IMG/VR virus record: IMGVR_UViG_3300035438_000885
Location: 1 to 29,444 of that record
Origin: a virus
Strand: one strand, 5' to 3'
Length of the DNA stretch: 29,444 nt
The notes beneath the pieces were generated by a model, which saw only the letters and a program-made list of their open reading frames with translations, was not told where the DNA came from and did no database searches. A program made the translations under genes and the position numbers. The first letter of the stretch is position 1, and the number at the start of each line of letters is the position of its first letter. Positions 1,506-9,570 of the stretch are shown here, in pieces.

Positions 1506-1536
1506 CAAAGTTAGTCTATTAAACCGAATAAACAAA
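1506..1536 (-). promoter_or_regulatory. Bacteroidota-type promoter for leftward operon
   Basis: On the minus strand TTTG (1533-1536), exactly 19 bases, then TAACTTTG (1506-1513): a full match to the TTTG-N19-TAnnTTTG consensus used by the primary sigma factor of Bacteroidota. It sits just upstream of the ATG at 1486 and would drive the genes down to position 1. Confidence 0.85.
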
Positions 1537-1545
1537 TAAAAATAT

Positions 1546-1557
1546 TTTTGTACAAAA
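1546..1557. promoter_or_regulatory. 12-base palindrome, candidate operator
   Basis: TTTTGTACAAAA is a perfect palindrome midway between the two divergent promoters. The core TTTGTACA recurs at 1578-1585 and 3057-3064, in both cases overlapping the -7 element of a rightward promoter. This arrangement suits a regulator binding site but the motif is short and also occurs in coding DNA (near 13213). Confidence 0.4.
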
Positions 1558-1558
1558 G

Positions 1559-1589
1559 TTTGTAGTTTCAAAAAGTATTTGTACATTTG
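1559..1589 (+). promoter_or_regulatory. Bacteroidota-type promoter for rightward early genes
   Basis: TTTG (1559-1562), exactly 19 bases, then TACATTTG (1582-1589), about 20 bases before the ATG at 1610. It is divergent from the promoter at 1506-1536, so this ~120-base region is a two-way control region. Confidence 0.85.
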
Positions 1590-5665: not shown

Positions 5666-6061
5666 ATGAAACGAATTTACCATCCTTACGAAAAATGGGA
5701 GTGTTATAAAAATGGGATGTGGATTCCAACTACAAAGCAAGAAATAGAAACACAGCTAAATAATGCAATTTTATTTACTTCAAATCATGTAGAATATGGC
5801 AAAGCAATGAAAATTGTTTCTGAAAAATGGAGATTCGGAATGGAACATCATTTAACAGATACTGCTATAAACAAAAAAGCGTACATAGGGCATGCAGCAT
5901 GTAATTATAAATTTGGATGGTCAGAAGGGTTAGTAAGAATGGCATGGGGTCATTTAACAGATGAACAAAGAGATAAAGCAAATGCAGAAGCCGAAAAATA
6001 TATTAATTTTTGGATTTTAAGACACACTGAAAACGGTAATCAAATAAAATTATTCAATTGA
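5666..6061 (+). CDS. Hypothetical 131-aa protein with C-terminal QIKLF
   Basis: A 131-residue protein with a striking N-terminal HPYEKWECYKNGMW motif and a conserved-looking GHAACNYKFGWSEGLVR segment in the second half. I cannot assign a family. Its penultimate residues, QIKLF (126-130), match the beta-clamp-binding pentapeptide pattern Q-L-x-L-F with Ile in place of Leu. It begins the more AT-rich stretch that continues through the PP-loop ATPase cassette, and its TGA overlaps the next start. Possibly the first gene of that accessory cassette. Confidence 0.7.
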   Translation: MKRIYHPYEKWECYKNGMWIPTTKQEIETQLNNAILFTSNHVEYGKAMKIVSEKWRFGMEHHLTDTAINKKAYIGHAACNYKFGWSEGLVRMAWGHLTDEQRDKANAEAEKYINFWILRHTENGNQIKLFN

Positions 6062-6345
6062 AAGCTAAAATAATAGATTACATAAAAACATGGGAAAACA
6101 GGGGATATAAAAACGGCATACCAGATGAAGCCCCAATACTATTAGAGCAATTAGGAAAAGTTCCGTCATACAGAAAAATAGCAATAGCAATATTAAAAAA
6201 TGATTCATCTTTAAAAACTTTAGGATATACGCCAAAAAAATCAGTATATTATAATGTTTTAAAAAAAATAGAGATTGACGCAAGAACGGAACAGCATCCT
6301 AAATACAGAAAAAAAGTAAAAGACATTCAGCTAAAGTTATTTTAA
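6058..6345 (+). CDS. Free-standing copy of PAPS-reductase-family C-terminal domain
   Basis: A 95-residue protein starting at TTG (6058), which overlaps the preceding TGA. Residues 36-61 (PSYRKIAIAILKNDSSLKTL and following) closely parallel the C-terminal part of the PP-loop protein at 6588-7919 (TSWKRYAITILKNDHTCKYL, about residues 389-408). The N-terminal TWENRGYKNGIPDEAP segment recalls, from memory, the C-termini of IbrA/DUF3440-type phage PAPS reductases. It looks like a detached domain of that family. It ends in QLKLF (91-95), an almost ideal beta-clamp-binding peptide. TTG start is inferred from the overlap; no ATG fits. Confidence 0.7.
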   Translation: MKAKIIDYIKTWENRGYKNGIPDEAPILLEQLGKVPSYRKIAIAILKNDSSLKTLGYTPKKSVYYNVLKKIEIDARTEQHPKYRKKVKDIQLKLF

Positions 6346-6352
6346 GAAATAG

Positions 6353-6383
6353 TTTGTTTATGTCAAAAGTAATGCTATCTTTG
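6353..6383 (+). promoter_or_regulatory. Promoter of the PP-loop/EctC/ParB cassette
   Basis: TTTG (6353-6356), exactly 19 bases, TATCTTTG (6376-6383): a perfect consensus match, 19 bases before the ATG at 6403. It lies in the only real gap of this region and would give the accessory cassette its own transcription start. Confidence 0.85.
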
Positions 6384-6402
6384 TACCGCAAACATACCAT
6401 AA

Positions 6403-6591
6403 ATGAAAAACAGAAAAAAAACATCGTTTACACTTGACATTGAAACAATGCAAGGGTTAAGCCACCTCGCTAAAATAAACAAAAGAAGTATGGCTAACAT
6501 GATAGATATTTTAGTGTCAGAAAAGCTAAAAGAAAGAGAAAACGAATTTTTTAACCACATGAATAAAAAAGAAAAAAACACACGCAAATGA
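6403..6591 (+). CDS. Small ribbon-helix-helix-like protein
   Basis: A 62-residue basic protein. The arrangement KKTSFTLDIETMQGLSHLAK, then NKRSMANMIDILVSEKLKE (about residues 5-45) fits a ribbon-helix-helix fold: a short beta strand with Thr/Thr-type DNA contacts, helix A, a turn around NKRS, then helix B. It is the first gene after the cassette promoter and overlaps the PP-loop ATPase as ATGA. An autoregulator of the cassette is the simplest inference. RHH proteins are short and divergent, so the call is moderate. Confidence 0.65.
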   Translation: MKNRKKTSFTLDIETMQGLSHLAKINKRSMANMIDILVSEKLKERENEFFNHMNKKEKNTRK

Positions 6592-7919
6592 AAAAATACA
6601 TAGGAGTAAACGTATACGATGCAGCAAATGAGCGCATTGATTATATATTTAAAAACTTTGAAAGGATATATCTTTCCTTTAGTGGCGGTAAAGATAGCGG
6701 GGTAATGCTTAACCTTGTTATTGATTACATGAGAAAAAACAACATTAAAAGGAAAATAGGCTTAATGACTTTAGATAATGAAGCCAACTATAATTTAAGC
6801 CTTGAATTTATGCATTCTATAGTATCAAAAAATTTAGACCTTTTTGATGTTTATTGGTGCTGTTTGCCTATCACATTGCCTTGTACCGTTTCTTCATTTA
6901 TGACCGATTGGCAGTGCTGGGGGGAGCATGAAAAAGATTTATGGATTAAGCCAATGCCTAAAGAAAAATACATTGTCAATATACATAATTGCCCTTTTGA
7001 TTTTTTTGAGGAGAATATGGGGTATCAGGAATTTTGGGATAAGTTTGGTGACTGGTATGGTCAAGGTAAAGAAGTTGCTTGCATGATTGGTATTAGAACA
7101 CATGAAAGCCTAAACAGATGGAGAGCAATAATGAACGAAGATAAACAAACGCATGGTGGTCATATGTGGACTAAGAAAAACACCAATTATGTTTATAACT
7201 GCTACCCTATTTACGATTGGAAAACTGAAGATATTTGGATTGCAAATGAAAAATTTGATTGGGAATATAATAAGTTGTATGACATATTTTGGAAAGCTGG
7301 TTTAAGCATTTATCAAATGCGTGTAGCTAGTCCATTTATGAGTGAAAGCAAATCTTCATTAAACCTGTATAGGGTTATAGACCCAAATATATGGGCAAGG
7401 CTATGTGGCAGAGTTGCTGGGGCTAACTTTATAGCTACTTACGGTAAGCAAATAAATTACAATTCATTTAAGCTACCAAAAGGACATACATGGAAGTCTT
7501 TTGTTAAATTCCTAATATCTACATTGCCTGAAGAAATATCAGAAAATTTTAAGAAGCGTTTCATTCAAAGTATAGCCTTTTGGTGGAGAGTGGGGCGTGG
7601 ATTGAGCCAAGAAGTAATAGAAGATTTGCGTAAAAACAATATACCATTTTTGTTAGGAGGGAACACTAATCATGGTAGGCAAGATAAAGAGAGGGTTAGA
7701 ATGTTACCGCAAGACCATTTAGATATGCTAAAATGCCATAATTCAGATGTTACATCATGGAAGCGATATGCAATTACTATTTTAAAGAATGACCATACTT
7801 GCAAGTATTTGGGGCTAATGCCAACAAAAGAACAAATGCAAAGACAAAAACAAATAGCAGAAAAATATAAAAACTTAGAAAAAACCAAAAACACACAAAA
7901 TGCAAATCAGAACAATTAA
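6588..7919 (+). CDS. PAPS-reductase-family PP-loop ATPase (IbrA-like)
   Basis: A 443-residue protein with the PP-loop signature SFSGGKDSG (about residues 30-38), which binds ATP pyrophosphate in PAPS reductases, DndC and related enzymes. Downstream GIRTHESLNRWRAIM and YPIYDWKTEDIWIA are typical of the IbrA/DUF3440 branch found in phages and plasmids, usually beside a ParB-fold partner, as here at 8926. Most of that branch has no assigned reaction; related enzymes adenylate or thiolate nucleic acids or small molecules. The C-terminal ~55 residues parallel the separate protein at 6058-6345. The end overlaps the next gene by 20 bases. Family call strong, substrate unknown. Confidence 0.88.
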   Translation: MKKYIGVNVYDAANERIDYIFKNFERIYLSFSGGKDSGVMLNLVIDYMRKNNIKRKIGLMTLDNEANYNLSLEFMHSIVSKNLDLFDVYWCCLPITLPCTVSSFMTDWQCWGEHEKDLWIKPMPKEKYIVNIHNCPFDFFEENMGYQEFWDKFGDWYGQGKEVACMIGIRTHESLNRWRAIMNEDKQTHGGHMWTKKNTNYVYNCYPIYDWKTEDIWIANEKFDWEYNKLYDIFWKAGLSIYQMRVASPFMSESKSSLNLYRVIDPNIWARLCGRVAGANFIATYGKQINYNSFKLPKGHTWKSFVKFLISTLPEEISENFKKRFIQSIAFWWRVGRGLSQEVIEDLRKNNIPFLLGGNTNHGRQDKERVRMLPQDHLDMLKCHNSDVTSWKRYAITILKNDHTCKYLGLMPTKEQMQRQKQIAEKYKNLEKTKNTQNANQNN

Positions 7920-8385
7920 CCAAATAAAGAACACCGAAAGAGATGTTAAGTTTACTGGCGGTAATAGCCTACGACTAATACTTGAATCCGATAATATGGG
8001 ATTTGCTTTTATGAAAACAATTATCCCTAAAGGTGGACCGCATAAATGGCACTATCCACATCATTTAGAATCTTGTTTTTGTATAGCTGGTAGTGGCATA
8101 CTTACCAACCTAACTAATGGAGATGTACACAATATTTTTGTTGATACAATCTATATATTAGACGGCAACGAGCCACACACGTTTGAAGCTACAGAAGATT
8201 GTGTATTGATTTCTGTTTTTAATCCACCATTAAGCGGTAATGAAGCGCACGACATAAACGGACATTATCCAAAATCAAACTACACAAAGGTTATTGCAAA
8301 AAAGATAGTTGCTGAATTAGATTGCTGCAAAAACAATTATGATGCTGTAGAAATAGTTGAATCCATACTAAACAACAATAAATGA
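7900..8385 (+). CDS. ectC: Ectoine synthase (EctC)-like cupin
   Basis: A 161-residue protein matching L-ectoine synthase along nearly its whole length: MQIRTINQIKNTERDV at the start, YPHHLESCFCIAGSG in the cupin core and SVFNPPLSGNEAHD before the end. EctC is an iron-dependent cupin that cyclises N-gamma-acetyl-diaminobutyrate. The iron ligands I recall from the Paenibacillus enzyme (E57, Y85, H93) all fall at identical positions here, as do R25, T40, Y52, H55, F107, E115 and H117; the recalled substrate residues W21 and N38 are replaced by G and M. No ectA or ectB is present. Start codon overlaps the PP-loop gene and the end overlaps the nuclease gene. Family strong; substrate may differ. 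Confidence 0.88.
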   Translation: MQIRTINQIKNTERDVKFTGGNSLRLILESDNMGFAFMKTIIPKGGPHKWHYPHHLESCFCIAGSGILTNLTNGDVHNIFVDTIYILDGNEPHTFEATEDCVLISVFNPPLSGNEAHDINGHYPKSNYTKVIAKKIVAELDCCKNNYDAVEIVESILNNNK

Positions 8386-8942
8386 AAAAGCCAAGCATAA
8401 GCAATTTGCTTAAAATATTAGATAAGCCTGCATTATTAAAATGGGCTAACAAAAAGGGTCTTGAAGGCGTAGATATTTCAGTATACACCCAAAAAGCTAT
8501 GAGTGAAGGGACTGCAATACACAGACAAATACAGTCTTATTTAGAAGATGGGGTTGCTTTTAATGATATGTACATGCAACATTGCTTTGAAACATTTATT
8601 TCTGATAAAGAAATATTAGGGTGCGAAAAAGAAATAGAAACAGATTATTTTGTTGGTAGGTACGACTTAAAAATAAGGTTAAAATCAAACAATAAAACAA
8701 TTTTAGTAGATTTTAAAAGCACAACAAGTGGAGCAAACAAAAAACTGTACATAGAAAATAAATTGCAACTTATAGCCTATGGAATGGCTGAAAATTGTGA
8801 TGATTTTGCAATAGTTACTTTGCCCGATTTCAGTTATATACCTTTTGAAGTTTTAGATAGAACACCATACGAAGAAATTATCAAGTCACTTTCTAACATT
8901 TACTTACTTAAAAAACAAATAGACAATGGAACAACTAACTAA
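8382..8942 (+). CDS. Cas4/RecB-type PD-(D/E)XK nuclease
   Basis: A 186-residue protein with all landmarks of the RecB/Cas4-like nuclease fold in order: GTAIHRQI (43-50, motif I), acidic CEKEIETDY (81-89), GRYDL with Asp95, the catalytic LVDFKST (D110-x-K112), and LQLIAYGMA (Q129...Y133, the QxxxY motif). No Cys cluster for an iron-sulphur site is apparent, unlike many Cas4 proteins. It starts at an ATGA overlap with the EctC-like gene and overlaps the ParB-like gene by 17 bases. It may act with the cassette proteins or with the Sak4-like ATPase as an end-processing exonuclease; the sequence does not decide. Confidence 0.85.
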   Translation: MKKPSISNLLKILDKPALLKWANKKGLEGVDISVYTQKAMSEGTAIHRQIQSYLEDGVAFNDMYMQHCFETFISDKEILGCEKEIETDYFVGRYDLKIRLKSNNKTILVDFKSTTSGANKKLYIENKLQLIAYGMAENCDDFAIVTLPDFSYIPFEVLDRTPYEEIIKSLSNIYLLKKQIDNGTTN

Positions 8943-9570
8943 TTTAATCGAACAAATTAAACATTTACCAACAGATGAATTGGTAGAAACAATTAACAAA
9001 ATAAAACTTGCCTTACACGAAATTAGCCCATTTAGTAAAGAACCAGTTGATTGTGTTTTATGGGTTAAAAACTCTATGGTTAAGGCTAATGATTATAACC
9101 CTAACAGCGTTGCCCCGCCTGAAATGGAACTGTTAAAGCAATCAATATTAGAAGATGGCTATACACAACCAATAGTATCTTTTAATGACGATGGTAACAT
9201 TATTGTTGTAGATGGATTTCACAGGAATAGAGTAGGTAGAGAATGTAAAGATGTAGAACAAAGAATACATGGATATTTACCAGTAGTAAATATTAATCAA
9301 TGGAAAACTGGTAAGTCTGATAGGATGGCTTCAACCATACGACATAACAGGGCTAGAGGTTCTCACAACATAGAGTTAATGAGTACTATAGTTACTGAAT
9401 TAGTAGAAATGGGGAAAGGTGATTCATGGATATGCGCACACATAGGAATGAGTAAAGATGAATTGTTGAGAATGAAACAAATTACAGGGCTGTCATCTCT
9501 ATTTAAAAATAAAGACTTTTCGCAAGCATGGGAAGCGGATAGCATAGTTGAACAAGAAGAAAACGCCTAA
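8926..9570 (+). CDS. ParB-fold protein (IbrB-like)
   Basis: A 214-residue ParB/sulfiredoxin-fold protein. YNPNSVAPPEMELLKQSI (57-74) and EDGYTQPIV lead to VVDGFHRNRVG (94-104), the box equivalent to the ParB GERR/nucleotide-binding element; RMASTIRHNRARGSH (133-147) is characteristic of the IbrB branch that accompanies IbrA-type PP-loop proteins. A likely helix-turn-helix follows (WICAHIGMSKDELLRMKQIT, 168-187). In Escherichia coli the IbrA/IbrB pair was described as activating immunoglobulin-binding genes; mechanism remains unsettled. It closes the accessory cassette. Confidence 0.85.
   Translation: MEQLTNLIEQIKHLPTDELVETINKIKLALHEISPFSKEPVDCVLWVKNSMVKANDYNPNSVAPPEMELLKQSILEDGYTQPIVSFNDDGNIIVVDGFHRNRVGRECKDVEQRIHGYLPVVNINQWKTGKSDRMASTIRHNRARGSHNIELMSTIVTELVEMGKGDSWICAHIGMSKDELLRMKQITGLSSLFKNKDFSQAWEADSIVEQEENA

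What the first reader, a model, noticed from the sequence alone, without database searches (positions are those of the whole stretch)
6353..9570. PP-loop ATPase / EctC-like cupin / Cas4-like nuclease / ParB accessory cassette
Seen: five overlapping genes under one consensus promoter encode an RHH-like protein, an IbrA-type PAPS-reductase-family ATPase, an ectoine-synthase-like cupin, a PD-(D/E)XK nuclease and an IbrB-type ParB protein. Known: IbrA/IbrB-like pairs travel on phages and plasmids without a settled biochemistry, and PP-loop relatives such as DndC take part in DNA sulphur modification. Inference: the cyclising cupin and nuclease may extend an activation chemistry into a nucleotide or DNA modification, host-takeover or counter-defence system. 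I know of no description of this four-part combination.
Basis: partly seen in the sequence, partly recalled or inferred. Interest (0 to 1): 0.85.

Follow-up and report, generated by a model that had tools for sequence, protein, structure and literature searches.

The report
Phage ectoine-synthase-like enzyme complex (IbrA-IbrB)
Many viruses of bacteria carry a fixed set of five genes in which an enzyme resembling the one that closes the ring of the salt-protectant ectoine always travels with an ATP-using activator and a DNA-partitioning-like protein; it looks like an undescribed viral enzyme machine, perhaps one that chemically marks DNA.

Summary
In detail: 6403-9570 encodes an RHH-like protein, IbrA (PP-loop + DUF3440), an ectoine-synthase-family cupin, a PD-(D/E)XK nuclease and IbrB (ParB/Srx), overlapping, behind a Bacteroidota-type promoter. 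It is not a chance cluster. In 85 viral loci with the cupin (80 found by the cupin alone), IbrA and IbrB lie beside it in 83 each (exceptions at contig ends); in 22 the cupin and IbrB are one protein, as in cultured mycobacteriophage Gaia. Two small genes it missed (5666-6061, 6058-6345; 'X', 'Y') belong to the core (79/85, 78/85); the nuclease and RHH genes are occasional extras. X has no Pfam, PHROG or PDB match; Y is a stand-alone copy of ordinary IbrA's C-terminal domain. The cupin keeps ectoine synthase's iron ligands and catalytic core, but Trp-21, conserved in ectoine synthases, is replaced in all 86 sequences, and no ectB was found: probably a cyclodehydratase for another substrate. 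Viral cupins and their IbrA partners each form one clade; none of 79 cellular ectC loci has the partners. Proposed function (inferred, about 0.4): a complex that modifies phage DNA or a nucleotide. No description was found in open full text.

The parts
5666..6061 (+).
   Evidence: Present beside the module in 79/85 EctC loci and 60/74 EctC-less IbrAB loci, 23 of the latter as IbrB-X fusions; AF2 pLDDT 94, no PDB fold match; no Pfam/PHROG match
6058..6345 (+). Gene Y, 95 aa (TTG start), stand-alone copy of the IbrA C-terminal (DUF3440-end) domain
   Evidence: DUF3440 1.3e-5; present in 78/85 EctC loci; Y profile covers the C-terminal domain of ordinary IbrA, median 73.5 bits versus 24.7 in EctC-class IbrA
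6353..6383 (+). Bacteroidota-type promoter TTTG-N19-TATCTTTG, about 20 bases before the RHH start codon
6403..6591 (+). Small RHH/Arc-like DNA-binding protein, accessory
   Evidence: phrog_3180 Arc-like repressor 3.6e-4, Pfam RHH_5 0.06
6588..7919 (+). IbrA: PP-loop ATP pyrophosphatase (SGGKDS) of PAPS-reductase fold plus DUF3440; EctC-class
7900..8385 (+). EctC-like cupin, predicted Fe(II) cyclodehydratase with intact metal ligands and altered substrate tryptophan
8382..8942 (+). PD-(D/E)XK (RecB/Cas4-like) nuclease, optional accessory
   Evidence: PDDEXK_1 3.8e-4, phrog_298 2.4e-11, PADLOC Cas4_II 4.5e-4; relatives beside the module in only a few loci
8926..9570 (+). IbrB: ParB/sulfiredoxin-fold protein (DGFHR, RHNRARG motifs) with C-terminal HTH-like part
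   Evidence: phrog_2159 2.4e-72; motifs at least 97% conserved in 244 relatives; match to ParB 4umk

Best explanation
The window carries one copy of a virus-borne five-protein enzyme complex (IbrA, EctC-like cupin, IbrB, X, Y). Most likely mechanism: IbrA uses ATP to adenylate an oxygen of a nucleobase or of a small carboxylate and so installs an amino-bearing group; the EctC-like cupin, with Fe(II), removes water to close that group into a cyclic amidine, as ectoine synthase does on N-acetyl-diaminobutyrate; IbrB, a ParB/Srx NTP-switch protein with an HTH part, is fused or bound to the cupin and brings the chemistry to phage DNA; X and Y hold IbrB and IbrA together. The product would be a modified base in phage DNA, or a modified nucleotide, made during replication. 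Shown: the gene set, its strict linkage, fusions, single origin, near-restriction to viruses and intact catalytic residues. Inferred: physical complex, substrate, DNA as target, purpose (protection from host defence).
For: Linkage: IbrA and IbrB beside EctC in 83/85 loci each, the exceptions at contig ends, always on one strand, in shuffled orders. Fusions: EctC-IbrB in 22 loci including Gaia gp104; IbrB-X in 23; X-Y and Y-IbrB once each. Catalytic residues: Fe ligands E57 and Y84 in 86/86 and H92 in 85/86; S23, R25, T40, Y52, E114, H116 in 86/86 (residue roles from PMC6344544). IbrA keeps SGGKDS and folds like PAPS reductase, ATP sulfurylase and FMN adenylyltransferase. IbrB motifs conserved. 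Coupling: EctC-class IbrA is one clade (SH-aLRT 100) with class-specific Cys99 and Cys273; viral EctC is one clade (99). Location: inside the replication block, next to helicase and Prim-Pol. Virus restriction: at least 591 viral matches for X, but 1 of 395 Bacteroidota genomes (the already known phage-like contig) and 0 of 274 of the other class searched. Precedents for ParB-like proteins with DNA modification: DndB with DndC, DpdB with DpdA (PMC12839542, PMC10853773).
Against: No modified base has been shown and no substrate identified. The only reported phenotype of an IbrAB pair is activation of prophage eib genes (Sandt 2002, known here only from its title in a reference list), a regulatory reading. 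The precedents are analogies: IbrA is far below the DndC cut-off (21.7 versus 290 bits). EctC-less IbrAB sets are common, so the cyclisation cannot be needed for every IbrAB function. EctC evolves faster than IbrA and IbrB in the window pair. The IbrA model is of middling quality (pLDDT 80).
Confidence: 0.4

Rival explanations
1. The complex makes a free small molecule (a cyclic amidine from an activated amino acid) that acts as a signal or as a counter-defence metabolite, with IbrB as its sensor or regulator.
For: EctC enzymes act on free amino-acid derivatives and can cyclise glutamine (PMC6344544, PMC5924519); all catalytic residues are kept; EctC is fused to a DNA-binding-like protein, as a sensor-regulator might be.
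Against: No biosynthesis partner such as EctB in any viral locus; the substrate tryptophan is replaced in 86/86; small-molecule synthesis alone does not explain the obligatory ParB-like and X partners, also present without EctC.
Confidence: 0.25
2. It is a transcription-regulatory module: IbrA and IbrB activate late or prophage genes, as reported for E. coli IbrAB, and EctC is a non-catalytic ligand-binding or scaffold domain.
For: IbrA/IbrB are annotated as co-activators of prophage gene expression in several phage records; an RHH gene is adjacent; IbrB has an HTH-like part.
Against: Invariance of EctC catalytic residues and of the PP-loop across the loci argues for catalysis; the E. coli phage IbrAB examined has neither X nor EctC.
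Confidence: 0.15
3. It modifies tRNA rather than DNA, in the manner of PP-loop tRNA enzymes (TilS, TtuA, NcsA).
For: IbrA's PP-loop domain also matches TtuA, NcsA and TilS structures; TilS makes an amidine-like base by adenylation (general knowledge).
Against: The partner IbrB belongs to the ParB/Srx superfamily, whose known roles are mostly with DNA and NTPs; no tRNA-binding domain was recognised; genes lie in the DNA replication block.
Confidence: 0.15
4. Chance cluster of unrelated accessory genes.
For: Phages shuffle small accessory genes; the nuclease and RHH genes are indeed not conserved.
Against: 83/85 co-occurrence, repeated fusions, single origin of both EctC and its IbrA.
Confidence: 0.02

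Closest known systems
IbrA/IbrB pairs of phages and E. coli (co-activators of prophage gene expression)
   Same: Same two protein families; X is also present in most non-EctC phage versions sampled (60/74).
   Different: The EctC class adds the cupin and free Y, forms its own IbrA clade, has Cys99/Cys273 in place of Asn/Val and a rewritten IbrA C-terminal domain; the E. coli phage IbrAB in L241 has neither X nor EctC.
Ectoine synthase EctC, including orphan EctC proteins
   Same: Same cupin family, Fe ligands, catalytic core and C-terminal motif.
   Different: No EctB in any viral locus; Trp-21 replaced, with Phe nearby in 84/86; C104S in 54/86; separate clade; obligatory IbrA/IbrB; EctC-IbrB fusions.
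Dnd DNA phosphorothioation (DndC PP-loop, DndB ParB/Srx)
   Same: Pairing of a PAPS-reductase-like PP-loop enzyme with a ParB/Srx protein.
   Different: Weak similarity only (DndC 21.7 bits against a cut-off of 290); no DndA/D/E recognised in the module; a cupin and X/Y instead.
Dpd deazaguanine DNA modification (DpdA TGT + DpdB ParB-like ATPase)
   Same: A ParB-like protein as partner of a DNA base-modifying enzyme (PMC12839542).
   Different: No TGT-like gene among the recurrent module genes; adenylation plus cyclisation predicted instead of base exchange.

Membership tests
Ectoine synthase (EctC) | Cupin sequence family above curated cut-off | tested here: met
   PRK13290 140.5 bits versus 128; Pfam PF06339 1.6e-39
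Ectoine synthase (EctC) | Fe ligands Glu57, Tyr84, His92 and core Tyr52/Thr40/Arg25 | tested here: met
   86/86 except His92 in 85/86
Ectoine synthase (EctC) | Trp-21 that contacts and pushes the substrate, conserved in 437 cluster EctCs and, sometimes shifted by two residues, in 145 orphans | tested here: not met
   Gly 43, Phe 40, Cys 2, Met 1 in viral proteins; Trp in 60/60 EctB-linked cellular controls; literature value from PMC6344544
Ectoine synthase (EctC) | Linked ectA/ectB | tested here: not met
   EctB-like ORF in none of the viral loci searched, but near 60/79 cellular ectC loci; EctA not searched separately
Ectoine synthase (EctC) | Makes ectoine from N-gamma-ADABA | not testable with these tools
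   needs an assay
IbrA | PP-loop SGGKDS plus DUF3440 | tested here: met
   DUF3440 2.4e-58; motif invariant in alignment A5
IbrB (ParB/Srx) | DGxHR motif and ParB-type N..R box | tested here: met
   D96 G97 H99 R100 and R139-G145 at least 97% in 244 relatives; 4umk ParB E 6e-4; Pfam ParB_N only 0.084, below its cut-off
IbrAB | Activates prophage gene expression | not testable with these tools
   reported for E. coli; not tested for this class
PAPS reductase (CysH) | Catalytic ECG-x-H cysteine motif near the C terminus | tested here: not met
   No ECGxH in the IbrA sequence; NCBIfam PAPS reductase 15.6 bits versus cut-off 154
DndC | TIGR03183 cut-off | tested here: not met
   21.7 bits versus 290.4
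Cas4 / PD-(D/E)XK nuclease | D...DxK active site and family match | tested here: met
   GRYDLK..ILVDFKST in the ORF; phrog_298 2e-11; Cas4_II only 4.5e-4, so RecB/Cas4-like, not shown to be Cas4

The most novel reading that the evidence does not exclude
A virus-borne nucleic-acid hypermodification machinery in which a PP-loop enzyme attaches, and an ectoine-synthase-type cupin cyclises, a side group on DNA, loaded by a ParB-like switch: a new base chemistry (cyclic amidine) and a new use of the ectoine synthase fold.
Probability: 0.3. Interest if true: 0.95.

Novelty: new variant of a known kind. Interest (0 to 1): 0.78.

Why it matters
Two long-standing unknowns, what IbrA/IbrB do and what ectoine-synthase-like proteins outside ectoine clusters do, are tied together here by near-perfect linkage and by fusion. 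The system occurs in cultured phages of laboratory hosts (Gaia and Nebkiss on Mycobacterium smegmatis mc2 155, XCL1123 on Pseudoalteromonas marina), so one nucleoside mass-spectrometry run and one gene deletion could settle much of it. It also supplies two new components: protein family X and the trans-acting IbrA C-terminal domain Y.

Tried and rejected
Chance cluster: rejected. Host-acquired ectoine pathway: rejected, no EctB, separate clade and Trp-21 replaced; a scan of viral contigs with cellular EctC as the query again found only module-type loci. Nuclease and RHH as core: rejected. Host defence island: unlikely, X was found in 1 of 669 sampled genomes (the known phage-like contig), though the second sample had no positive control and the tool warns that its empty result alone shows little. 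Fold search with X gave nothing in the PDB and in the viral library one match only, an unnamed 116-aa protein, probably the XCL1123 X protein. PDB profile search with IbrA gave only chance WD40 and weak LarE matches. Early claim that the substrate tryptophan is 'lost' was softened: a Phe lies at or three residues before that position in most viral proteins. MT835761, listed as a phage with EctC, is a bacterial ectB-ectC contig and was set aside. Literature: nothing on EctC with PAPS reductase in phages; only open-licence full text was searchable. Two genome searches failed on a wrong 'of' handle.
Full report
What is there. Families: IbrA (PAPS_reduct 2.7e-9; DUF3440 2.4e-58), ectoine synthase (1.6e-39; above the NCBIfam cut-off), PD-(D/E)XK nuclease (weak in Pfam, 2e-11 in PHROGs), IbrB/ParB (phrog_2159 2e-72) and a weak RHH protein. 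A Bacteroidota-type promoter TTTG-N19-TATCTTTG stands at 6353-6383. The window is a tailed phage, probably of Bacteroidota: the named phages that its terminase matches all infect Bacteroidota genera, apart from records without a host name. The cassette lies in the replication block, before an SF2-type helicase and a Prim-Pol.

Is it more than chance? In cultured phages, mycobacteriophage Gaia carries IbrA next to one protein made of EctC fused to IbrB, and Pseudoalteromonas phage XCL1123 has IbrA, EctC and IbrB side by side. A scan of viral contigs with an EctC alignment alone found 131 relatives; the best 80 were kept. With the window, the two phages and two loci from the IbrB scan these make 85 EctC loci. 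IbrA was found in 83 and IbrB in 83, always on the same strand; L009, L061 and L075 lack one or both at a contig end. In 22 loci EctC and IbrB share one ORF, EctC first.

Clustering the neighbouring ORFs showed two more constant genes, X and Y, in 79 and 78 of the 85 loci; only L027 and L053 lack both away from contig ends. In the window they are 5666-6061 and 6058-6345, just upstream of the promoter. X is also present in 60 of 74 IbrAB loci without EctC, where 23 are IbrB-X fusions, while Y as a separate gene is nearly absent there (1 of 74). A scan with X as the query found at least 591 viral loci; in the 80 kept, X lay with IbrA, IbrB or both unless the contig ended. X models as a confident all-helical protein (pLDDT 94) with no PDB match and no Pfam or PHROG family. 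Y matches the C-terminal domain of ordinary IbrA (median 73.5 bits) better than that of EctC-class IbrA (24.7 bits), whose own C-terminal domain is rewritten. Y is therefore best read as an IbrA C-terminal domain supplied in trans.

The EctC-like protein. Against the solved ectoine synthases the iron ligands and most of the catalytic core are invariant in 86 viral sequences (one His92 exception), but Trp-21 is Gly or Phe (Cys or Met in three), and Cys-104 is Ser in 54. A Phe lies at position 18 or 21 in 84 of 86, so a partial substitute for the ring contact is possible. Cellular controls from 80 genome loci: 60 of 79 have EctB nearby and all 60 keep Trp-21; none of the 79 has IbrA, IbrB, X or Y; the eightieth (L161) is a phage-like contig in a MAG and has the whole module. 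The tree separates viral from cellular proteins with SH-aLRT 99, though it rests on only 135 columns.

The IbrA protein. EctC-class IbrA is one clade (SH-aLRT 100) with class-specific Cys99 and Cys273, while the EctC-less class has Cys247 instead. Its PP-loop is the ATP-pyrophosphatase type SGGKDS, and the model resembles PAPS reductase, ATP sulfurylase and FMN adenylyltransferase. It is not a PAPS reductase by motif or cut-off. A third group (X-Y-IbrA-IbrB without EctC; 8 loci) has in the EctC slot once the same kind of nuclease as the window (L242) and once a methyltransferase-like protein (L262). That suggests an exchangeable tailoring step on an IbrA product; two single cases are thin support.

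How it most likely works. The fusions link EctC-IbrB, IbrB-X, X-Y and Y-IbrB, so a multi-protein complex is the simplest reading (inference). Adenylation by IbrA, Fe-assisted ring closure by EctC and loading by IbrB are inferred from family chemistry. DNA as target is inferred from the ParB/Srx partner, the replication-block location, the near-restriction to viruses and the precedents DndC/DndB and DpdA/DpdB. Rivals are a free metabolite, a regulator and tRNA modification; none is excluded.

Novelty. IbrA/IbrB pairs are a known, biochemically unexplained kind, so this is filed as a new variant of it: an EctC-dependent class with two unlisted core proteins. The EctC-ParB fusion had been named by the depositors of Gaia and XCL1123, but no analysis of the combination was found.

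Limits. Viral loci are mostly metagenomic. The EctC seeds came from module-type proteins; the control scan with cellular EctC did not find another kind on viral contigs. The 51 weaker EctC hits were not seen. X and Y profiles were built from these loci. EctA was not searched for by itself. The genome sample for X is small, and the second sample had no positive control. Only open-licence papers were searchable.

Noticed in passing
L242:4280-4879 and L262:2906-3466: In EctC-less X-Y-IbrA-IbrB loci the slot between IbrA and IbrB holds the same kind of PD-(D/E)XK nuclease as the window, or a methyltransferase-like protein (phrog_9361), as if tailoring enzymes were exchanged.
   Followed up: partly
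L005 (MT835761.1): A GenBank 'Bacteriophage sp.' record is really a bacterial contig with ectB and ectC-type genes.
   Followed up: yes
L171, L178, L202: Orphan cellular EctC proteins with the substrate Trp shifted (such as DVNWG-NGQSRR); in two of them the stretch around Met38 resembles the window protein.
   Followed up: no
L162-L175 (mostly Marinobacter, Saccharospirillum): EctC, mostly with Trp-21, but no EctB-like ORF found within the fetched flank (up to 8 kb).
   Followed up: no
L003:5890-6264: In Gaia gp105 sits between the EctC-IbrB fusion and X; the Nebkiss homologue is annotated as a GIY-YIG-like endonuclease, possibly a homing insertion.
   Followed up: no
window 1506-1589: Two divergent Bacteroidota-type promoters back to back, between a leftward gene block (491-1486) and the rightward early genes: a possible switch region.
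   Followed up: no
L105:3831-5483: An IbrA with an intermediate score (about 40% identical to the window) and no recognised EctC, X or free Y; an unidentified 144-aa ORF lies between it and IbrB.
   Followed up: no
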